From NCBI GenBank assembly GCA_022843955.1, contig JALHMQ010000007.1, positions 62,001 through 126,000 of the forward strand: DNA of 64,000 nucleotides. Direction: 5' to 3'. The notes under the pieces are model-generated. The model was not told the DNA's origin, searched no databases, and worked only from the letters and a program-made list of their open reading frames with translations. This DNA comes from Burkholderiaceae bacterium. Lineage in GTDB: Bacteria; Pseudomonadota; Gammaproteobacteria; Burkholderiales; Burkholderiaceae_F. Made by a program: the position numbers and the translations under genes. Below, one piece after another: positions 4,814 to 15,450 of the stretch (its first letter is position 1; each line of letters opens with the position of its first letter).

Positions 4814-5736
4814 AGCCAACCCCGCTGCTGGCGCCGACACGCACCACCACCGAGCCGGTGTGGGTGCGCCTGCTGCTCACCGCGATCGCGCTCGCCTTCA
4901 TCGGCCTGTTCATCGTGCTGCCGCTGATCTCGGTGTTCGTCGAGGCGTTTCGCAAGGGCTTTGATGCGTATTTCACCGCCATCGCCGAGCCCGACGCGGT
5001 GGCGGCAATCCGCCTGACGCTGCTGGCGGCCGCGATCGCGGTGCCTCTGAACCTCGTGTTCGGGGTCGCCGCCGCCTGGGCGATCACCAAGTTCGAGTTT
5101 CGCGGCAAGCAGTTCCTGATCACGCTGATCGACCTGCCGTTCTCGGTGTCGCCGGTGGTGGCGGGCCTCATCTACGTGCTGGTGTTCGGCGCGCAGGGCT
5201 GGTTCGGGCCGTGGCTGCAGGCCAACGACATCAAGGTGGTGTTCGCGCTGCCCGGGATCGTGCTGGCGACGATCTTCGTCACCTTTCCGTTCGTGGCGCG
5301 CGAGCTGATCCCGCTGATGCAGTCGCAGGGCACGGAAGAAGAGGAAGCCGCGCTGACGCTGGGCGCCTCCGGCCTGCGCACATTCTGGAAAGTGACGCTG
5401 CCCAACATCAAGTGGGGCCTGCTTTATGGCGTGATCCTGTGCAACGCGCGGGCGATGGGAGAGTTCGGCGCGGTGAGCGTGGTCTCCGGCCACATCCGTG
5501 GCGAGACCAACACGATCCCGCTGCACGTCGAGATCCTCTACAACGAGTACCAGTTCGCGGCGGCCTTCGCGGTCGCCTCGATCCTCGCCTTCCTCGCCCT
5601 CGTCACGCTGACCATCAAGAGCTTCATCGAGTGGCGCGAGGAGCGCGCCCGCGATTGGGCCCAACGCAGCGCCGTGGCCGACGACAGCGAGCGCCTGCGC
5701 GCGCGCGCCGCAGCCGCCGCGCCGGCCGCCGCCTGA
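4810..5736 (+). CDS. cysW: Sulfate/thiosulfate ABC transporter inner-membrane permease CysW
   Basis: The second permease subunit, 308 residues from the ATG at 4810, which overlaps the cysT stop as ATGA. A GTG at 4792 in the same frame would add six residues but lies inside cysT. Hydrophobic helices begin at [19 protein letters not shown]. The ATPase-contact loop reads [20 protein letters not shown] and is followed by [20 protein letters not shown], typical of CysW. The C-terminal tail is alanine- and arginine-rich and looks cytoplasmic. It pairs with CysT and is energised by CysA 31 bp downstream. Confidence 0.94.
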
Positions 5737-5767
5737 CCCTGCTCTGCAAAGCATCCGAGAGATCGCC

Positions 5768-6841
5768 ATGTCCATCGAAGTCCGCAACCTGGCCAAACGC
5801 TTCGGCACCTTCACCGCGCTCGACGATGTCTCGCTCGACATCGACAACGGCGAGCTGGTAGCGCTGCTGGGCCCCTCCGGCTGCGGCAAGACGACGCTGT
5901 TGCGGGTCATCGCCGGGCTGGAGACGCCCGACGCCGGCCATGTGGTGGTGCATGGGGAAGACGCCACGCGCCTGGCGGTGCAGCGGCGCCAGGTCGGCTT
6001 CGTGTTCCAGCACTACGCGCTGTTTCGCCACATGACGGTGTTCGACAACGTTGCCTTCGGCCTGCGCGTGAAGCCGCGCCGCGAGCGGCGCAGCGAGGCC
6101 GACATCCGCGCGCGCGTCAAGCAGTTGCTGCAGCTGGTGCAGCTGGACTGGCTGGGCGATCGTTACCCCAACCAGCTGTCCGGCGGCCAGCGCCAGCGCA
6201 TCGCGCTGGCCCGTGCGCTCGCCGTGGAGCCCAAGGTGCTGCTGCTCGACGAGCCGTTCGGCGCGCTCGACGCCAAGGTGCGCAAGGAGCTGCGGCGCTG
6301 GCTGCGCCGGCTGCACGACGAACTGCACGTGACCAGCGTGTTCGTCACCCACGACCAGGAAGAGGCGCTCGAGGTGGCCGACCGCGTGGTGGTGATGAAT
6401 CATGGCCGCATCGAGCAGGTGGGCACGCCCGACCACGTCTACACCCATCCGGCCAACGCCTTCGTCTACGGCTTTCTCGGCACCGTCAATCGGTTCCACG
6501 GCAACACGCTGGGCGGCACCTTCACCGGCGACGGCCTGCAGATGGCGCTGGCTCAGGATGCCGCCAGCGAAGGGGCCTCGATCGCGTTCGCGCGGCCGCA
6601 TGATCTCGACGTCGAGCGCTACTCGCCCGGTGCCGACGGCGTGGCCGCCGATCTGGTGCGCCAGTATCTGCGCGGCGCCAGCGTGCTGCTCGAGCTCGAG
6701 CGGCACGGCGGCTCGGGCAGCGAGCCGATCGAGGTCGAGGTCAGCCGCTCGGCGTTCGACAAGCTCGGCCTGAAGCTCGGCGAGACGCTCGTGGTGCGAC
6801 CGAAGTCGCTGCGCGTGTTTGCCACCGGAGCCACGCCTTGA
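5768..6841 (+). CDS. cysA: Sulfate/thiosulfate ABC transporter ATPase CysA
   Basis: The ATPase subunit, 357 residues, working at the cytoplasmic face of CysTW. It has Walker [10 protein letters not shown] (near residue 37), the Q-loop in VFQHYALF, the signature LSGGQRQR, Walker [13 protein letters not shown] and the H-loop in [12 protein letters not shown]. The C-terminal third is the TOBE-like regulatory domain usual in CysA, containing [15 protein letters not shown]. Length matches the family. Its stop TGA overlaps a TTG start of the rhodanese gene, so cysTWA, rhodanese and the LysR gene probably form one transcript. Confidence 0.95.
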
Positions 6842-7365
6842 ACGATCTGTCGCCGCGCGCGCACGTCCTGCCGCCTTCCGCCACGGAGGCAACCTCAGGC
6901 GTGACGGCAGAAGCGGGAGCAAAGGCGGATGCGGCCGCCATCGTCGCGCGGGCGCGCGCCCGCCGTCTGGGCGACTGGACCTACGCTGGCGCCGTCACGC
7001 CGCCCGAGGCGTGGCAACTGTTCCTTGACGGCGCTGCCAAGCTGGTCGACGTGCGCACCGCGGCGGAACTGCGCTACGTCGGCCGCGTGCCAGGTGCGGC
7101 GCACGCCGAGTGGCACGGCAGCGAGTACGCGCAGGCGCAACGCTTCGTCGCCACGTTGCAAACGCTTGCCGCACCCGAGGACATCGTGCTGCTGCTGTGC
7201 CGCAGCGCGGTGCGCTCGCATCATGCGGCGGCGGTCGCCGCCGCGGTCGGCTACACGCGCGTGTTCAACATCCTCGAAGGCTTCGAAGGCCAGCGCAACC
7301 ATGAGCAGCAGCGCGGGCTGATCGACGGCTGGCGCCATCACCGCCTGCCGTGGCTGCAGGAGTGA
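6838..7365 (+). CDS. Rhodanese-domain protein in the sulfate operon
   Basis: A 175-residue cytoplasmic protein beginning at a TTG that overlaps the cysA stop; no downstream ATG retains the domain intact. The rhodanese core runs from about residue 50, with [20 protein letters not shown], the active-site loop [14 protein letters not shown] and ILEGFEGQ. The loop cysteine would carry a persulfide, so sulfurtransferase activity is plausible. The placement between cysA and a CysB-type regulator suggests handling of thiosulfate-derived sulfane sulfur after import. That role is inferred from context only. Confidence 0.85.
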
Positions 7366-7371
7366 CGACGA

Positions 7372-8316
7372 ATGAACCTGCAACAGCTGCGCATCGTCCA
7401 GGAAGCGGTGCGGCGCCGCTTCAACCTGACCGAGGTGGCGGCCGCGCTCTACACCTCGCAGTCAGGCGTCAGCAAGCACCTGATCGATCTGGAAGACGAA
7501 CTGGGCGTGCAGCTGTTCATGCGCCGGGGCAAGCGCCTCACCGGCCTGACCGAGCCCGGGCGCGAACTGTCGCCGATGGTCGACCGCCTGCTGCTGGAGC
7601 TGGGCAACATCCGCCGCCTCGCCGATCACTTCACGCAGCGCGACGAAGGCACCCTGCGCATCGGCACCACGCACACGCAGGCGCGCTACGCGCTGCCGAA
7701 GATCATCGCCGCGTTCCAGGCCGACTATCCGCGTGTGAGCCTGCTGCTTCATCAAGGCGCGCCGGCCGAGATCGTGGCGATGCTGCTGGCCGACGAGGTC
7801 GACATCGGCGTGGCGACCGAGGCGCTGGCGGCCGAGGCGCAGTTGGCGTCCTACGCCTTCTACCGCTGGCACCACGCGGTGGTGGTGCCGCGCGATCATC
7901 CGCTGACGCGGCTCGAGTCGTTGTCGCTGGCCGATCTGGCGGCGTATCCGCTGGTCACGTATCACGCCGGTTTCACCGGCCGCAGCCGGGTCGATGCCGC
8001 ATTTGTGCGCGCTGGGCTCAGCCATCGCGTGGTCCTGTCGGCACTCGACAGCGACGTCCTCAAAGCCTATGTCGAACTCGGCCTGGGCATCGGCGTGATC
8101 GCCCCGACCGCGTTCGACACCCGGCGCGACAGTGGCCTCGCGCTGCTGCCGGCCGATCACCTGTTCGAAGAGAACACCACGGTGGTGGCGGTGCGCCGCG
8201 ACCGCTTCCTGCGCGGCTATGCGCGCGACTTCTTGTGCCGATGCTGCCCGGATGCCGCGGCGCAAACGCACATGTCCACCGCAGCGATGCCACCCGTCGA
8301 GACCGCCGGCGCCTGA
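7372..8316 (+). CDS. cysB: CysB/Cbl-type LysR transcriptional regulator of sulfur assimilation
   Basis: A 314-residue LysR regulator. The N-terminal winged helix-turn-helix (residues 1-60) reads NLTEVAAALYTSQSGVSKHL, a signature of the CysB/Cbl branch. The effector domain follows from LRIGTTHTQARYALPKII, and TTHTQARY matches the part of CysB that senses sulfate or O-acetylserine-type ligands. It starts 7 bp after the rhodanese stop, so it is the last gene of the sulfate operon and likely regulates it. CysB and Cbl are hard to separate without alignment. The last 30 residues after LCRCCPDAAA look unstructured. Confidence 0.88.
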   Translation: MNLQQLRIVQEAVRRRFNLTEVAAALYTSQSGVSKHLIDLEDELGVQLFMRRGKRLTGLTEPGRELSPMVDRLLLELGNIRRLADHFTQRDEGTLRIGTTHTQARYALPKIIAAFQADYPRVSLLLHQGAPAEIVAMLLADEVDIGVATEALAAEAQLASYAFYRWHHAVVVPRDHPLTRLESLSLADLAAYPLVTYHAGFTGRSRVDAAFVRAGLSHRVVLSALDSDVLKAYVELGLGIGVIAPTAFDTRRDSGLALLPADHLFEENTTVVAVRRDRFLRGYARDFLCRCCPDAAAQTHMSTAAMPPVETAGA

Positions 8317-8799
8317 CCTGATGTTGCCGCGGGGTTTCGCAGCTCGACCGCGCGACCGACGGCACCCGCTTGGATCGCATTGCCGAGGTCGAGCGAGCCA
8401 GGACTCGCGAGCGATTGCCCGGACCGGCGCTGCTCCGTCCAACCCTCACACGCGCCTGGCTGCATTCTTGAATGCCGCTTGATGCCAACCGCCGTCGGCC
8501 GGCGATGCGAGGCGCACTCGGGCAGGCACGACTCGCCTTGCCAACCTCCCGACCCTGCCGACCTGGCTCGCCGTCTCACTGTGCACACAGCGCGCTGAGG
8601 GACTCGCAAGCAATGTCGCCGGCCCTGCTTGCCTAGCGGCGGCGCCTGCGCAGCACAGCGTTCACTTCACGCAGGGTTCACTTCACGCAGCGTTCACACA
8701 AGCCGCTGCGTCCCTTCTAACGCACTTCTCACCCGCGTCCGACAGTTCGCCCCGTGATCAACCCGCCGCATGCATCGCGGCACCACGAGGAGAACCACG
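8317..8799. other. Intergenic region upstream of the exosortase locus
   Basis: A 483-bp stretch between cysB and the secreted accessory gene at 8800. No convincing coding sequence was seen on either strand. It holds the 16-bp tandem repeats listed separately at 8661-8698, close to the downstream gene, and probably carries the promoter of the exosortase cluster. A ribosome-binding site (GAGGAGAA) lies just before the 8800 start. Confidence 0.6.
8661..8698 (+). repeat. Tandem 16-bp direct repeats in a promoter region
   Basis: TTCACTTCACGCAG occurs at 8661-8674 and again at 8677-8690, followed by a partial third unit (TTCACAC) at 8693. The period is 16 bp. It ends about 100 bp before the gene at 8800, in the only gap that could hold the promoter of the exosortase cluster. 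A regulator-binding function is inference. Confidence 0.6.
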
Positions 8800-9645
8800 A
8801 TGTCGGCCACGAAAGCCTTGCCCCGCGCCACCCGGATCGTCCCGCTGCTGTGCGCGCCCGTGCTGGCGCTGAGCGCGCTCGCCCCGGCCGCCGCCCAGCT
8901 GCCGCGCCTGCCGCCGGTGATCATCACCGCGCCGGCGCCGGTGCAGCTCGACACCGGCATCGACAGCTCGCCACTGACGCTGCTCGCCAACCATGTGGAC
9001 GTGCGCGTGATCGGCGGCGCCGCGCGGGTGCGCACCACGCTCACCTGGCGCAACGACGGCGTCCAGCCGGTGCGCGCGCAGCTGCCGGTGCCCTTGCCCT
9101 CGGCGCTGGCCACCGTGCAGCAGGTGATCCTCGAGCCGGTCGACGGCTGCGGTGACGATCTGGATGCACTGATGGCGTCGCTCGACGCGGACGAGGAGCG
9201 TGTCGACCCCGAGTTCATCGAGGTCGGCGAGCGACCCGCCACGCGCGGCCACAGCGAGGTGGTGCTGGCCCCCGGCGAGGAAGTGACGGTGGTGGTCGAG
9301 CGCGACACCGAATTGCTCACGCGCGGCGATCGTCACCGGCTGGTGTTGCCGTTGCTGACCCAGCGCCACGGCATGTTCACGCCGCAGTTTTCGGCCGCGG
9401 TGTGGATCGATGCGGCGCGACCGATCGTCGAGCTGGCCTCTGCCACCCACGCGGGTGAGATCAGCGGCATCGGCGACACCCACGCGCAACTGCTCGTCCC
9501 CAGCGGCCGAGTCCACGAAGGGCAGTTCCTGGCGATCGACTTCACGCTCGGCGGCGAGCTCGCACCGCCGCCCAGCGTGGCAGTCGACGACGGCCGGCGC
9601 TGGGGCGGCGAAGCGCGCCTGCGTGCGCTGGTGGCATCGCGCTGA
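8800..9645 (+). CDS. Secreted VIT-like accessory protein of the exosortase locus
   Basis: A protein of 281 residues from the ATG at 8800, which has a good GAGGAGAA ribosome-binding site; a start at 8770 lacks one. An N-terminal signal peptide ends near AAAQ. The mature region contains VDVRVIGGAARVRTTLTWRN and PVRAQLPVPLPSALATVQ. These resemble the beta-strand pattern of VIT (vault/inter-alpha-trypsin) domains, but there is no von Willebrand A domain and no sorting tail. It is followed 24 bp later by the VIT-vWA gene. I do not recognise a named family; it may be a secreted partner of the VIT-vWA protein. Confidence 0.6.
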   Translation: MSATKALPRATRIVPLLCAPVLALSALAPAAAQLPRLPPVIITAPAPVQLDTGIDSSPLTLLANHVDVRVIGGAARVRTTLTWRNDGVQPVRAQLPVPLPSALATVQQVILEPVDGCGDDLDALMASLDADEERVDPEFIEVGERPATRGHSEVVLAPGEEVTVVVERDTELLTRGDRHRLVLPLLTQRHGMFTPQFSAAVWIDAARPIVELASATHAGEISGIGDTHAQLLVPSGRVHEGQFLAIDFTLGGELAPPPSVAVDDGRRWGGEARLRALVASR

Positions 9646-9669
9646 CGCTGACGCCCGCCGGAGCCCGCC

Positions 9670-12081
9670 ATGACGCATCCGCTCGATCTCGCCAAGCACC
9701 CCATGCCGCCGCGCCGCGCGGCCGCCTGGCCCGCCGTGCCGTGCACGCTCAAGCGCGGCGCGCTGCGCACCGCGCTGAGCTGGCTCGCGGCCATGGGCGC
9801 GCTCGTGCTGCTGACCGCCGCCGCCACCTTCGTGCTGTGGGCCGGCGCGCTCGGCAGCGCGCGCGCCGCCGCGCCGGACACCAGCCGCACGCTGGCGCCG
9901 TACTTCGTGGTCGACCAGGCCGAGCCTGGCGTGGAGGCGCTGCCGCTCAAGCACACGCGGGCGGACGTCACCATCAGCGGCGTGATCGCCGACGTGCGCG
10001 TGACGCAGGTGTATCGCAACGAGGGCAGCGTGCCGATCGACGCGCGCTACGTGTTCCCGGCCTCGTCGCGGGCGGCGGTGCACGCGCTGCGGCTGCGCGT
10101 GGGCGAGCGCGCGGTGGACGCCGTGATCCGCGAGAAGAAGCAGGCGCGCGCCGAGTTTGCGCAGGCGCGGCGCGAGGGCAAGAGTGCGGCGCTGCTCGAA
10201 CAGCAGCGGCCCAACGTGTTCACGATGGCGATCGCCAACGTGATGCCGGGCGACGAGATCGCGGTCGACCTGCGCTACACCGAGACCATCGTCCCCACCG
10301 ACGGCACCTACCGCTTCGTCTTTCCCACCGTGGTCGGGCCGCGCTACAACGGCGGCACCTCCGATGTGTCGCCCTCCCCCGCGAGCGGGGGCGTAGGCGG
10401 GGTTTCGGCGAGTGCCCTGCGGCACTCGCCGCCGCCGGAGCCGGGCGCGCTTGCCAGCGCGCCCGTGGGCGGGATGGAGAGGGGGCGCGATGCAGTGGGT
10501 TCACGGGCCGACGCCCGGCCGCACGAAGGCGGTCCGTCTGACTTGACCGCCGAGGGTGCACGTGCGAGCGCGCAGCGCTCGCGTACACCCGAGGCGCATG
10601 CCGACAGCTGGATCGCGCAGCCGATCCTGCGTGCCGGCACGCCCGCCAGGCACACGTTCGAGCTGGCGGCGCGCATCGTCGCCCCGATGCCGATCACGAG
10701 CGTCGCTTCGCCGTCGCACGGGCTGACGATCGACGGCACCGGCTCGCGCGAGGCGCGGATCACGCTGCCGGCCGCCGCCGCCCACGCCAACCGCGACGTG
10801 GTGATCGAGTACCGGCTCGCCGGCACGGGCATCGGCACGGGTCTCCTGGTGCAGCCCGGCCGCAACGCCGACGACGAGCACTTCTTCCTGCTGATGGCCG
10901 AGCCGCCGGCCCGCGTGGCCGCCAGCGAGGTGCTGCCGCGCGACTACGTGTTCATCGTCGACGTGTCGGGCTCGATGCACGGCTTTCCGCTGAACGTCAC
11001 CAAGGCGTTGCTGCGCGACCTGATCGGTCGCCTGCGGCCGAGCGACACCTTCAATGTGATCCCGTTTGCCGGCGGCCACTCGCTGCTGCACCCGCAGTCG
11101 CTGCCGGCGTCGGAAGAGAACATCGCCCGCGCGATCCGCTTCATCAACGGCCAGACCGGCGGCGGCGGCACTGAGCTGCTGCCGGCGCTGCGCCGCGCGC
11201 TCGATCTGCCGACCGATGTCGGCCGCGCCCGCAGCTTCATCGTCGTCACCGATGGCTACGTCACCATCGAGAAGGAGGCGTTCGACCTGGTGCGCAACCG
11301 CGCCGGCCAGGCCAATCTGTTCGCCTTCGGCATCGGTTCGTCGATCAACCGCTTCCTGATCGAGGGGCTGGCGCGCGCCGGCAAGGGCGAGCCGTTCTTC
11401 GTGCTCGACGAATCGCACGCCGAGCAGGAAGCGCAGCGCTTTCGCAAGATGATCGAGCAGCCGGTGCTCACGCGCATCCGTGTGTCCTTCCCCGAGGGTG
11501 CGGCCGGCGAGGTATTCGAAGCGTATGACCTCGATGCGCCGCAGCTGCCGGATCTGTTCGCCCAGCGCCCGCTGGTGCTGATGGGCAAGTTCCGCGGCCC
11601 GCTTGCCGGCACCATTCAGATCGAAGGTCTCGCTGCCGGTGGCCGCGTGCAGCTGCCGCTGGACTTGGCGCAGGCGGTGCAGACCAGCCAACGTGAGAAC
11701 CCTGCCGGCGCCCCCACGCAGGGTCTGAAGTACCTGTGGGCGCGCAGTCGCATCGCGCAACTGGGCGACTACACCAAGCTGGGGGCCGACGACGCGCTGG
11801 TGCGCGAGATCACCGCGCTCGGCCTCAAGTACAACCTGCTCACCGACTACACGTCGTTCATCGCGATCGACAAGGTGGTGCGCAACCCGGTGGCGCCGGC
11901 GCGCAGCGTCGACCAGCCCAGCCCGCTGCCCGACGGCGTGAGTGAGCTGGCCGTGGGCGAGGCGCCCGCCACGCCGGAACCGGAGTTCGCGCTGCTGGCG
12001 GCGTTGGCCGGCGGGCTCACCTGGTGGATGCGCCGGCGGCAGCGCGCGCAGGCCGCACGGCAGGAGGCCCGTCGTGGCTGA
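9670..12081 (+). CDS. VIT and vWA domain surface protein with PEP-CTERM-like sorting tail
   Basis: An 803-residue exported protein. The N terminus has a hydrophobic segment (about residues 35-65). A VIT domain (about 75-225) includes VRVTQVYRNEGSVPIDARYV and RYTETIVPTDGTYRFVFP. Next comes an 85-residue low-complexity insert that coincides with palindromic repeat DNA. A vWA domain (about 425-600) has an intact MIDAS: DVSGSM, the GGTELL threonine and VVTDGY. The C terminus is a sorting signal: TPEPEF, a hydrophobic stretch ALLAALAGGLTWWM, then RRRQR. This matches PEP-CTERM logic, and the exosortase gene starts inside its last codons. It is the probable sole substrate of that enzyme. Confidence 0.85.
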   Translation: MTHPLDLAKHPMPPRRAAAWPAVPCTLKRGALRTALSWLAAMGALVLLTAAATFVLWAGALGSARAAAPDTSRTLAPYFVVDQAEPGVEALPLKHTRADVTISGVIADVRVTQVYRNEGSVPIDARYVFPASSRAAVHALRLRVGERAVDAVIREKKQARAEFAQARREGKSAALLEQQRPNVFTMAIANVMPGDEIAVDLRYTETIVPTDGTYRFVFPTVVGPRYNGGTSDVSPSPASGGVGGVSASALRHSPPPEPGALASAPVGGMERGRDAVGSRADARPHEGGPSDLTAEGARASAQRSRTPEAHADSWIAQPILRAGTPARHTFELAARIVAPMPITSVASPSHGLTIDGTGSREARITLPAAAAHANRDVVIEYRLAGTGIGTGLLVQPGRNADDEHFFLLMAEPPARVAASEVLPRDYVFIVDVSGSMHGFPLNVTKALLRDLIGRLRPSDTFNVIPFAGGHSLLHPQSLPASEENIARAIRFINGQTGGGGTELLPALRRALDLPTDVGRARSFIVVTDGYVTIEKEAFDLVRNRAGQANLFAFGIGSSINRFLIEGLARAGKGEPFFVLDESHAEQEAQRFRKMIEQPVLTRIRVSFPEGAAGEVFEAYDLDAPQLPDLFAQRPLVLMGKFRGPLAGTIQIEGLAAGGRVQLPLDLAQAVQTSQRENPAGAPTQGLKYLWARSRIAQLGDYTKLGADDALVREITALGLKYNLLTDYTSFIAIDKVVRNPVAPARSVDQPSPLPDGVSELAVGEAPATPEPEFALLAALAGGLTWWMRRRQRAQAARQEARRG
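10372..10606. repeat. Palindromic repeat cluster inside the VIT-vWA coding sequence
   Basis: Four consecutive inverted repeats lie in frame within the gene at 9670: CCCTCCCCCGC with GCGGGGGCG, GGCGAGTGCC with GGCACTCGCC, GGGCGCGCT with AGCGCGCCC, and a GTGTAC-family hairpin (core 10551-10592, minus orientation). The encoded residues are low-complexity (Ser, Pro, Ala, Gly, Arg). Similar palindromes otherwise sit between genes in this window. Confidence 0.7.
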
Positions 12082-13909
12082 GCCGCTGCACGCTCGTATC
12101 GGTCGCACCCAGGCCAGCCCGTTGTTCGGCGCGCTGGTGCCGCTGGGGCCGCTGTCGCCCGACCACCCCGCCGGTGCCCGTGGCAGCGACGGCCGCGGTG
12201 AACCAAGGCACGGGTCGCCACGCTCGCTGCATGGGCTGCATGCGCTGCGTGCGTTTCGTTCGTTGCGTGCGACATGCGCGCTGCGCGCCGCGCGTGTGAT
12301 GTGCCTGCTACGCGCTGCGCTCACCGCGTGCCGCACCCGCGTGTCAAGCAGCGACACCGCGCCGCTGCGCCACACTGGCGTGCTGCTCGGCGTGCTGCTG
12401 CTGGCGCTGTGGCCGCATCTGGCGTGGATCGCGCGGCGGCTCACCGATGGCTCCGACGAACCCTGGGGCGTGCTGGCGCTGGCCACCGTGCTGGTGCTGC
12501 TGGTGCGCGATCGGGCCGCACTGGTGACACCGTCACCGCGCGCGCTGGCCCTGAGCGCCGTGCTCGCACTGGGCGCCACCGCGGCGCTCTGGTGGCTGCC
12601 GGCGCTGCTGGCAGCGGCTCTGGCCATGCTTTCGCTCGCGGTGTTCATCACCGCCGCGCTGCCGGCACGGCCGGCCGCACCGATGGCGACGCTGCTGCTG
12701 CTGTCGCTGCCGCTGATCGCCTCGCTGCAGTTCTATCTCGGCTTTCCGCTGCGGGTGGCCACCGCGCACGCCGCCGCGCCGCTGCTCGCGCTCGTCGGCA
12801 TCACGGCCGCCCCGGCGGGCGCCTCGCTGGTGTTCGGCGCCACCACCGTGCTGATCGACGCGCCGTGCGCCGGCATCGGCATGTTGTGGGTCGGCTCGTT
12901 CACCGCGGCGCTGCTGTCGTACCTGAACGGTGCCGACGCGCGGCGCACGCTGGCCAACGGCGCCGCGGCGGCGCTGATCGTGTTCGCCGCCAACGTGCTG
13001 CGCAATGTCGCGCTGTTCTTTCCTGAAGCCGGTTTGATCGAAGCGCCCGCCCTCACCCACGACGCCGTGGGTCTGGCCGCGTTTGCGCTGGCGCTGGTGC
13101 CGATCCTCTGGCTGACGCGGTGGCGCGCCGCCACGCCATCCACCGCTGCCACCCCTCGTTCCGTGCCGCCTGCCGTCAGCCCGCTGACCGCACGCATGCG
13201 CGCTCCCTACGTCGGCGCTTGTCTGGCCGCGGCCGTGGTGCCGCTCGCCGTGTCCGTGCTTGCACGCGACGCGGCGGGCGCGACGCCGGTTCGATCTGCT
13301 GCGCAGGCAGCGATCGACTGGCCCACCACGTTCCGCGGCCAGCCGCTGGCCCAATTGGCGCTCACGCCGCTGGAGGCGCGCTTCGCGCAGCGCTTTCCCG
13401 GCGTGATCGCCCGCTTTGCCGCCGGCCGCGAGGTCCTGGTGCTGCGCCACGTCACGCAGCCGACGCGGCAGCTGCACCCGGCCGTGGACTGCTTCCGCGC
13501 CGCCGGCTTTGTCACCGGCGCGCCGCGCGCCAGCACCGCCGACGACGGCCGCGCCTGGAGCTGCTTCATCGCCACCCGTGACGGCGAGCGGCTGCGGGTG
13601 TGCGAGCGCATAGCTCGCGCCATCGGTGCGCAAGCTTCAAATGCGAAAGCTATCAATTCGCACGCCATCCATCCGCAAGCCATCGACGCGCAAGCCATCG
13701 ATGCGCAAGTCACGGAGGCGCAGGGCAACAGTGCGCAGGGCAACCGTACGCAGGTCGCCGATCCGCTGGCCAACGACGCGCAGGCCTGGACCGACGTCTC
13801 GGCCTGGTACTGGGCGGCACTACGCGCACCGGCTGGGCCATGGTGGGCGATCACGGTGATCACGCCGCTGCCGACGGTTGAGGCGGCGGCACGCGTGCCG
13901 TCTGTCTGA
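12074..13909 (+). CDS. Exosortase with fused C-terminal periplasmic domain
   Basis: An integral-membrane cysteine transpeptidase of the exosortase family, 611 residues from a GTG overlapping the VIT-vWA stop; an ATG at 12299 would remove an odd arginine-rich N terminus. About eight transmembrane segments are seen. Catalytic residues are Cys265 in LIDAPCAGIGMLWV, Arg310 in ANVLRNVALFF and His329 in THDAVG. After residue 385 a soluble EpsI-like domain follows, ending in SAWYWAALRAP and interrupted by ten degenerate pentapeptide repeats (AQAID type). The family cuts PEP-CTERM-like tails in the inner membrane. The neighbouring VIT-vWA protein is the obvious target. I cannot assign the subclass (XrtT-like is possible) without a profile search. 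Confidence 0.82.
   Translation: MAEPLHARIGRTQASPLFGALVPLGPLSPDHPAGARGSDGRGEPRHGSPRSLHGLHALRAFRSLRATCALRAARVMCLLRAALTACRTRVSSSDTAPLRHTGVLLGVLLLALWPHLAWIARRLTDGSDEPWGVLALATVLVLLVRDRAALVTPSPRALALSAVLALGATAALWWLPALLAAALAMLSLAVFITAALPARPAAPMATLLLLSLPLIASLQFYLGFPLRVATAHAAAPLLALVGITAAPAGASLVFGATTVLIDAPCAGIGMLWVGSFTAALLSYLNGADARRTLANGAAAALIVFAANVLRNVALFFPEAGLIEAPALTHDAVGLAAFALALVPILWLTRWRAATPSTAATPRSVPPAVSPLTARMRAPYVGACLAAAVVPLAVSVLARDAAGATPVRSAAQAAIDWPTTFRGQPLAQLALTPLEARFAQRFPGVIARFAAGREVLVLRHVTQPTRQLHPAVDCFRAAGFVTGAPRASTADDGRAWSCFIATRDGERLRVCERIARAIGAQASNAKAINSHAIHPQAIDAQAIDAQVTEAQGNSAQGNRTQVADPLANDAQAWTDVSAWYWAALRAPAGPWWAITVITPLPTVEAAARVPSV
13628..13777 (+). repeat. Ten degenerate 15-bp tandem repeats within the exosortase gene
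   Basis: In-frame 15-bp units, consensus GCGCAAGCCATCGAT, encode pentapeptides such as AQASN, AKAIN, PQAID, AQAID and AQGNS. Divergence increases toward both ends. The array separates WSCFIATRDGERLRVCERI from the terminal AWTDVSAWYWAALRAP of the EpsI-like domain. Confidence 0.75.
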
Positions 13910-13929
13910 CTTTGCGACCGGAGCAGGCC

Positions 13930-15450
13930 ATGCACGTCGAGATCACCCGCGATCGCCCCCGGGCGCGGTGGCGCCTGCTGCTGCGCATCGCCGGCGCCAC
14001 GGCGCTCGGCACGGCATTGCTGCTCGCCACGCTCGGCGTCATCATCGCCACCAGCGGCGTGTTCGACCGCCGCGCCGGCGCCTGGACGGTGCCGCTGTCG
14101 CCGCTGCCGGGCGTGACGATCGAGGCCAACGTCGCCGGCCTGGCGCGGCTGGCCACGTCACCGATCGGCTTGCGTGTGCTCGATGGACAGGCGCGCACCA
14201 CCCGTCTGGGTCATCTGCGCCTCGCCCGCGAGCACGACACGCTGGTGCTGCACTGCGCGCCCTGCCGGTTGACCGATCCGCGCATCGCCACCCGCACCGT
14301 GGCGCTGCCCGCGGTCGAGCTGCGCGTCACGCGCCGCACCGGCATCGAGAGCAACAACCTGATCGACCTGCGCGTGAGCGCGCTCGACGTGCAGGCCAGC
14401 GCCGTCGCCACGCTGGCGCCCACCGGCATCACGCTTGCGTGGACGCTGCCCACGGTGCCGGTGGCGGCGCTGTATCGGGTGCTCGCCGATGCGGTGCCGG
14501 AGGCGCGCCTGGCGCGCATCGAAGGCCAGCTGCAGGCGCGGGGCACGCTGGCGCTGCCGACGCTGCGCGCCCGCAGCGACGTACGCATCGACGGTTTCGA
14601 GGTCGGCGGCCTCACCACCGAGCGGCTGCAGTCGGGCTGGTTCACCTTCAGCTGCCGCGCCGCCGATGGCAGCGCGCGCAGCGTGATGAGCGGCGACGGC
14701 GAGTCCGGCTGGCTCGACGAGGCCGCGCTCGGCACGCTGCTGCCCGCCGCGGTGCTGGCCGCCGAGGACCAGCGCTTCCTGCAGCACGCCGGCTTTGATC
14801 CGGTGGAGCTGACGCAGGTCCTTGCGCGCACCGATGGCGACGATGCGCCCGGCGCCGCGCTGCGCGGCGCCAGCACCGTCACCCAGCAGCTGGCGCGCAC
14901 GCTTTACACCGGTCCCGAGCGCACGCTGGCGCGCAAGCTGCGCGAGCTGCTGTACGCGGTGGAAATGGAGCGCACGCTGGGCAAGGCGCGCATCCTACAG
15001 CTGTACCTGAACACAGTGGATTGGGGGCCAGGCCTGTGCGGTGCGCGGGCGGCCGCGCGCACCTACTTCAACAAACGGGTGACGCAGCTGTCGCCGCTGG
15101 AGGCGGCGTGGCTGGCCGGCGTGCTGCGGGCGCCGCACGCGGCGCACGAGCGCCAGTTTCGCGCCGGTCAGGCCGACCCCGCGCGCGCGCAGTGGGTGCT
15201 GATGCAGATGCGCGAGCTGCCACGCGCGCAGCGTGAACGCGCTGCGCGCCAGGCGCTCGCCTTCGCGGCCCCGGTTCGGCCGCGGGCCGGCAGCAGCACC
15301 ACTCACCTGACGGGTCGGGCGACCGCGCCAGCGGAGCTGGCCCGCGTTGCACCCAGGCCGCCACCCCAGCCGGCAGCAGCGCTGGCACCCACATCCGCAC
15401 CAACGCCCCCACCCGCGCCGGCGCTGGCGGTCCATGCCGCGGCGTTGTGA
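13930..15450 (+). CDS. Monofunctional GT51 peptidoglycan transglycosylase
   Basis: A membrane-anchored lipid II polymerase, 506 residues from the ATG at 13930, which has GGAGCAGG upstream. One transmembrane segment lies at about residues 15-40. A long divergent region follows. The GT51 catalytic domain (about 260-430) has AAEDQRFLQHAGFD with the catalytic Glu279, GASTVTQQLARTLY, and ARKLRELLYAVEMERTLGK with LYLNTVDWGPGLCGARAAA. No transpeptidase domain follows, only a Pro/Ala-rich tail. It begins 20 bp after the exosortase stop, so a role in placing or tethering the surface protein at the cell wall can be proposed. It is longer than the usual MtgA (about 240 residues), mainly because of the 200-residue N-terminal region. 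Confidence 0.85.
   Translation: MHVEITRDRPRARWRLLLRIAGATALGTALLLATLGVIIATSGVFDRRAGAWTVPLSPLPGVTIEANVAGLARLATSPIGLRVLDGQARTTRLGHLRLAREHDTLVLHCAPCRLTDPRIATRTVALPAVELRVTRRTGIESNNLIDLRVSALDVQASAVATLAPTGITLAWTLPTVPVAALYRVLADAVPEARLARIEGQLQARGTLALPTLRARSDVRIDGFEVGGLTTERLQSGWFTFSCRAADGSARSVMSGDGESGWLDEAALGTLLPAAVLAAEDQRFLQHAGFDPVELTQVLARTDGDDAPGAALRGASTVTQQLARTLYTGPERTLARKLRELLYAVEMERTLGKARILQLYLNTVDWGPGLCGARAAARTYFNKRVTQLSPLEAAWLAGVLRAPHAAHERQFRAGQADPARAQWVLMQMRELPRAQRERAARQALAFAAPVRPRAGSSTTHLTGRATAPAELARVAPRPPPQPAAALAPTSAPTPPPAPALAVHAAAL

What the first reader, a model, noticed from the sequence alone, without database searches (positions are those of the whole stretch)
8800..15450. Compact exosortase system with one apparent substrate and a cell-wall polymerase
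Four genes run in one direction with short gaps or overlaps: a secreted VIT-like protein, a VIT-vWA protein ending in a PEP-motif, a hydrophobic span and RRRQR, an exosortase with intact Cys265, Arg310 and His329, and a monofunctional GT51 transglycosylase. Classical exosortases serve many PEP-CTERM proteins and sit beside exopolysaccharide genes. Here no polysaccharide gene and no second tail is seen, and the enzyme starts on its substrate's stop codon. The transglycosylase suggests cell-wall coupling. The architecture looks like a dedicated single-substrate surface display device.
Basis: partly seen in the sequence, partly recalled or inferred. Interest (0 to 1): 0.78.

Follow-up and report, generated by a model that had tools for sequence, protein, structure and literature searches.

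The report
Dedicated exosortase cassette with wall synthase
A short gene cluster in a proteobacterium (order probably Burkholderiales) encodes one membrane sorting enzyme and the single surface-type protein it most likely processes, a known kind of arrangement, but here a distinctive cell-wall polymerase belongs to the cluster in nearly all close relatives.

Summary
In detail: four co-directional genes (8800-15450) encode a VIT-like secreted protein, a VIT-vWA protein with a TPEP/hydrophobic/Arg tail, an exosortase with Cys265/Arg310/His329, and a monofunctional GT51. The genome also holds XrtA and XrtB in polysaccharide loci and nine ordinary PEP-CTERM tails, so this is not the only exosortase system; but the XrtQ-type tail occurs once (69 bits; next 22, an ordinary tail). 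VIT-vWA, exosortase, EpsI-like and GT51 genes stay together in about eight genera. Homologous VIT-vWA proteins elsewhere carry LPQTA-like tails beside class GN sortases: same scaffold, different enzyme, matching tail. That swap and 'dedicated' systems were published in 2011 (PMC3237569). Less familiar is the GT51: it carries a beta-rich CxxC domain that, in samples of 369 and 250 genomes, occurs only in XrtQ/VIT-vWA loci, bar one marginal partial match. Best reading: a dedicated exosortase system, new variant of a known kind; the acceptor and the GT51's role are inferred, not shown.

The parts
8800..9645 (+). Secreted VIT-like protein (signal peptide, one beta-sandwich region, no sorting tail)
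   Evidence: translation; homologues only in loci of the same family; AlphaFold model pLDDT 60, Foldseek best match ITI heavy chain 1, VIA Z about 11 to several beta-sandwich domains incl. ITI heavy chain 1
9670..12081 (+). VIT-vWA protein, proposed substrate (VIT about 9946-10278, vWA about 10948-11388)
   Evidence: PF08487, PF13768; TIGR03788 424.7 bits, below its cut-off 551.65
11968..12078 (+). C-terminal sorting tail: TPEP motif, hydrophobic span, Arg cluster
   Evidence: P, TPEP and Arg invariant in 11 aligned tails
12074..13909 (+). XrtQ-type exosortase with fused EpsI-like C-terminal domain (transmembrane core about 12392-13123)
   Evidence: NF012182 189.6 bits, cut-off 270; PF09721 81.1 bits; catalytic Cys 12866-12868, Arg 13001-13003, His 13058-13060
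13220..13909 (+). EpsI-like periplasmic domain; separate downstream gene in most relatives, fused in this genus
   Evidence: invariant LHP..DC motif in 17 sequences; similarity to EpsI only at motif level
13619..13754 (+). In-frame 15-nt tandem repeat inserted in the EpsI-like domain, absent in relatives
13930..15450 (+). Monofunctional GT51 peptidoglycan glycosyltransferase with membrane anchor; catalytic domain about 14716-15210
   Evidence: PF00912 146.7 bits; motifs AAEDQRF..H.G and GASTVTQQ conserved; VIA Z 17 to peptidoglycan glycosyltransferases
14086..14694 (+). Extra N-terminal beta-rich domain of the GT51 with conserved CxxC
   Evidence: profile occurs only in XrtQ/VIT-vWA loci in sampled genomes, apart from one marginal partial match

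Best explanation
This is a dedicated exosortase system. The VIT-vWA protein is exported by Sec through its N-terminal signal and held in the inner membrane by its C-terminal hydrophobic span. The XrtQ-type exosortase recognises the TPEP tail, cleaves it with its Cys/Arg/His triad and passes the protein to an acceptor, releasing it from the membrane for display in the envelope or at the surface. The EpsI-like domain assists the enzyme on the periplasmic side. The VIT-like protein is a lineage-specific secreted partner. The GT51 is an accessory that polymerises lipid II where the protein is processed, so display and wall growth are coupled. Shown here: gene linkage, catalytic residues, the match between tail type and enzyme type, and uniqueness of the tail in the genome. 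Inferred: cleavage, the acceptor, the final location, and the roles of the EpsI-like domain, the VIT-like protein and the GT51.
For: Tail and enzyme change together: 12 XrtQ-linked VIT-vWA proteins end in TPEP tails, and 14 class GN sortase-linked homologues end in LPQTA-like tails, none with TPEP. On a tree the GN-linked proteins form one side of a branch (98/95); the XrtQ-linked group is consistent with one origin, with weaker support (64/89). The XrtQ tail profile finds its own substrate at 69.4 bits and the next tail at 22.1 bits, which is an ordinary PEP-CTERM tail. No class GN sortase in the genome. Catalytic Cys, Arg, His invariant. A second XrtQ branch also pairs with a VIT-domain protein with a PEP tail. 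GT51 directly downstream in window, L024, L028, L029, L053, L054, L055, L091, L092, plus L052, L056 and cut-off L051; none beside 14 GN sortases.
Against: XrtA and XrtB are also in the cell and could act on this tail, or XrtQ on the nine other tails; sequence cannot exclude cross-talk. Two XrtQ/VIT-vWA loci (L094, L129) lack the GT51, so it is not part of the minimal device. Score below the curated XrtQ cut-off. No experimental work on XrtQ was found in the papers held.
Confidence: 0.74

Rival explanations
1. The exosortase is not dedicated: it shares the nine ordinary PEP-CTERM proteins with XrtA and XrtB, and adjacency merely reflects co-regulation.
For: Nine canonical tails and two other exosortases in the same genome; the shared PEP core gives weak cross-matches of the XrtQ tail profile to some of them (E 8.7e-4 and weaker).
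Against: Those tails score at most 22 bits on the XrtQ profile against 69 for the neighbour, and the PF07589 search does not list the neighbour's tail. Three of the nine tails lie on the XrtB contig C23, none near the XrtQ gene.
Confidence: 0.14
2. The GT51 is a passenger: an ordinary extra wall polymerase that happens to sit in the operon and has nothing to do with sorting.
For: Absent in L094 and L129 and from the VIT-membrane-protein branch; the genome has two other GT51 genes.
Against: Retained in about eight genera of several families, directly downstream in the same direction, with its own conserved N-terminal domain that in 369 and 250 sampled genomes occurs only in these loci, bar a partial 23-bit match in G073.
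Confidence: 0.3
3. The enzyme only trims the tail (a protease), releasing the VIT-vWA protein into the periplasm or medium with no covalent acceptor.
For: No acceptor has been identified here; the catalytic triad allows hydrolysis as well as transfer (family knowledge).
Against: By analogy, sortase is a transpeptidase and the same was proposed for EpsH (PMC1569441); archaeosortase substrates are lipid-anchored (PMC7157517, title and abstract only).
Confidence: 0.25

Closest known systems
Exosortase Q (XrtQ, NCBIfam NF012182)
   Same: Best-scoring exosortase model by far (189.6 bits, next XrtT 88); an above-cut-off XrtQ (G171, 366 bits) sits in the same VIT-vWA/EpsI-like/GT51 order
   Different: Window protein is below the curated cut-off of 270 and is fused to its EpsI-like partner
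Proteobacterial dedicated sortase system (class GN sortase TIGR03784 with target TIGR03788)
   Same: One VIT-vWA target next to its own sorting enzyme; targets are homologous
   Different: Unrelated enzyme and different tail (LPQTA-like); no GT51 in those loci
XrtN / XrtN-system VIT-domain protein (TIGR04476/TIGR04477)
   Same: An exosortase paired with a VIT-domain target by name; the second XrtQ branch carries a TIGR04477-like partner (106-111 bits, cut-off 250)
   Different: Window target is VIT-vWA, not the multi-span VIT protein; the enzyme scores only 49.5 bits on XrtN
Canonical PEP-CTERM/EpsH (XrtA, XrtB) systems
   Same: Tripartite tail with Pro-Glu-Pro and an EpsI-type partner (PMC1569441)
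   Different: Those serve many tails and sit in polysaccharide loci; both are present elsewhere in this genome
Dedicated systems and tail swapping in VIT-vWA proteins (PMC3237569, 2011)
   Same: Already reported that VIT-vWA homologues carry GlyGly-CTERM, PEP-CTERM or LPXTG tails according to the enzyme, and defined 'dedicated system'
   Different: Does not describe XrtQ in Burkholderiales or the GT51 linkage, in the sections read

Membership tests
Exosortase superfamily | PF09721 / TIGR04178 above cut-off | tested here: met
   81.1 bits vs 25.7; 46.1 vs 23
Exosortase superfamily | Catalytic Cys, Arg, His | tested here: met
   Cys265, Arg310, His329; invariant in 15 sequences
XrtQ (NF012182) | Score above curated cut-off (270 bits) | tested here: not met
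   189.6 bits; called XrtQ-type, not filed as XrtQ
[quoted passage not shown]
   XrtQ-type tail found once, 69.4 bits vs 22.1 for the next; based on sequence only
Canonical PEP-CTERM (PF07589) | Tail matches PF07589 | tested here: not met
   Window tail not among nine hits at E <= 0.1
EpsI (TIGR02914 / DUF3485) | Model match of the C-terminal domain | tested here: inconclusive
   No Pfam or TIGR02914 match; hhalign aligns only the H....C motif, not significant
Monofunctional GT51 (MtgA, TIGR02070) | Score above cut-off 182.65 | tested here: not met
   130.2 bits; GT51 fold and Pfam cut-off are met
Class GN sortase target (TIGR03788) | Score above cut-off and adjacent sortase | tested here: not met
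   424.7 vs 551.65; no class GN sortase in genome

The most novel reading that the evidence does not exclude
XrtQ uses lipid II or nascent glycan as its acceptor, and the dedicated GT51 with its own CxxC domain polymerises the loaded precursor, so an exosortase would anchor a protein covalently to peptidoglycan in a Gram-negative cell, as sortase does in Gram-positives.
Probability: 0.12. Interest if true: 0.8.

Novelty: new variant of a known kind. Interest (0 to 1): 0.42.

Why it matters
What bacterial exosortases attach their substrates to was described as unknown when the system was proposed (PMC1569441), and no later answer was found in the papers held. A system with one enzyme and one target, next to a wall polymerase, reduces that question to four genes. 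The existence of homologous targets served by an unrelated sortase gives a natural comparison of what the tail and enzyme contribute.

Tried and rejected
The idea that it is the genome's only exosortase system: rejected. XrtN, XrtT or XrtO assignment: much lower scores. EpsI membership of the fused domain: no significant profile match. Known fold for the GT51 N-terminal domain: only middling matches (Z at most 6.8) to lipocalin-like and other beta proteins, so no assignment; a Pfam scan gave one DUF748 hit at E 0.06 in one member. The plasmid search for VIT-vWA found class GN sortase targets in Rhizobium and Novosphingobium; the 49% match on a Pontibacter plasmid lies under a gene annotated as SusC/RagA and was not pursued. 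Promoter scan: nothing above chance. Literature: no study of XrtQ or class GN sortase function found; the archaeosortase/exosortase paper in J Bacteriol is not held.

Full report
What is there. The four genes lie on the + strand at 8800-9645, 9670-12081, 12074-13909 and 13930-15450. The spacings are a 24-nt gap, an 8-nt overlap and a 20-nt gap. Upstream lie cysTWA-like sulfate transporter genes and a CysB-type regulator, and downstream a response regulator/TPR gene; in the related loci examined the genes beyond the cassette look different, so the unit is these four genes.

The substrate. The 803-residue protein has a signal sequence, VIT (108.7 bits) and vWA (67.4 bits) domains, and a tail that begins ATPEPEFALLAALAGGLTWWMRRRQR. 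It matches TIGR03788, the target of the dedicated proteobacterial sortase, at 424.7 bits, below the cut-off of 551.65.

The enzyme. The exosortase matches NF012182 (XrtQ) at 189.6 bits, well above any other subfamily but below its cut-off of 270. Cys265, Arg310 and His329 are confirmed and invariant in an alignment of 15. Residues beyond about 400 form a domain that in most relatives is the next gene, with an invariant LHPxxDC motif. It is fused in the window's genus (window, G285, G284). It resembles EpsI, which is known to be fused or adjacent to exosortases (PMC1569441), but the relationship is only motif-deep in my tests.

Genome context. Two other exosortases are XrtA (322 bits) and XrtB (303 bits), in loci with glycosyltransferase-like and polysaccharide chain-length/export-like proteins (the neighbours were judged from their sequences, not by profile search). 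Nine canonical PEP-CTERM tails exist. A profile of XrtQ-type tails finds the window tail at 69.4 bits and nothing else above 22.1 bits. There is no class GN sortase.

Relatives. tblastn and ORF calls on loci from other genomes show VIT-vWA, XrtQ-type enzyme, EpsI-like and GT51 in the same order in L024, L028, L029, L053, L054, L055 (the same record as L023), L091 and L092, with partial contigs L051 and L056 in agreement (for L056 the VIT-vWA gene is on another contig). In G284 (L052) exosortase/EpsI-like and GT51 are present but no full VIT-vWA gene was found in that draft genome. L094 and L129 have VIT-vWA, exosortase and EpsI-like without a GT51. The VIT-like first gene was found only in the window's family (L051, L053, L054, L055). 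A second XrtQ branch (L026, L027, L030, L031, L130, L131, and by its tail L025) pairs with a different VIT-domain membrane protein ending in a PEP tail.

Enzyme swap. In 398 sampled Pseudomonadota genomes 45 carry a TIGR03788-type protein. Of the loci I opened, 14 (12 genomic and two plasmid) sit beside a class GN sortase and end in LPQTA-like tails, and none has a GT51. The 12 XrtQ-linked proteins, including the window's, all have TPEP tails. A tree keeps the GN group together (98/95), while one origin of the XrtQ group is likely but weakly supported (64/89). This extends a 2011 report that VIT-vWA proteins carry GlyGly-CTERM, PEP-CTERM or LPXTG tails according to the cognate enzyme, which also defined 'dedicated system' (PMC3237569). 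The concept is therefore not new.

The GT51. The catalytic domain is typical, with conserved motifs and Z about 17 to solved peptidoglycan glycosyltransferases. In front lies a membrane helix and a beta-rich domain of about 200 residues with a conserved CxxC. Its profile was found in 1 of 369 class genomes and 4 of 250 order genomes. The strong hits are the window's genome, G171 and G182, all beside XrtQ; G073 is a partial 23-bit match. The genome has two further GT51 genes. This specific, conserved linkage is the most unusual feature. It suggests, but does not show, that lipid II or glycan synthesis is tied to display of the VIT-vWA protein.

Verdict. A dedicated exosortase system, a new variant of a known kind. 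Mechanistic steps after recognition are inferred. The order assignment (Burkholderiales) is indirect, from a named relative, L024.

Noticed in passing
10370-10630: The VIT-vWA gene has an in-frame, low-complexity linker between VIT and vWA with two perfect short hairpins (10406-10431, 10442-10465); it looks like a repeat element inserted in the gene. No second copy of its first 25 bases in the window.
   Followed up: partly
13619-13754: A 15-nt tandem repeat in the EpsI-like domain adds about 45 residues not present in the aligned relatives.
   Followed up: partly
L026 (JAAYEK010000035.1) 5578-9259: An XrtQ, EpsI-like and VIT-domain cassette in a contig labelled Bacillota MAG; either misbinned, or an exosortase in a lineage where an outer membrane would be unexpected.
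   Followed up: no
L093 (G556) 6893-10602: A VIT-vWA protein with an SAPEPEG motif near its end beside a distant exosortase with a C-terminal extension (possibly XrtT-like), a third enzyme pairing for the same scaffold.
   Followed up: partly
L097 (G457:C3) 6900-9389: A VIT-vWA protein close to the XrtQ-linked group with neither exosortase nor sortase nearby and no sorting tail; the same genome has a separate class GN sortase/VIT-vWA pair (L096).
   Followed up: no
L130 11034-13417, L131 5912-8358, L093 4433-6829: What look like response regulator and histidine kinase genes lie next to the VIT gene in both XrtQ/VIT-membrane-protein loci and in L093 (judged from ORF sequences only).
   Followed up: no
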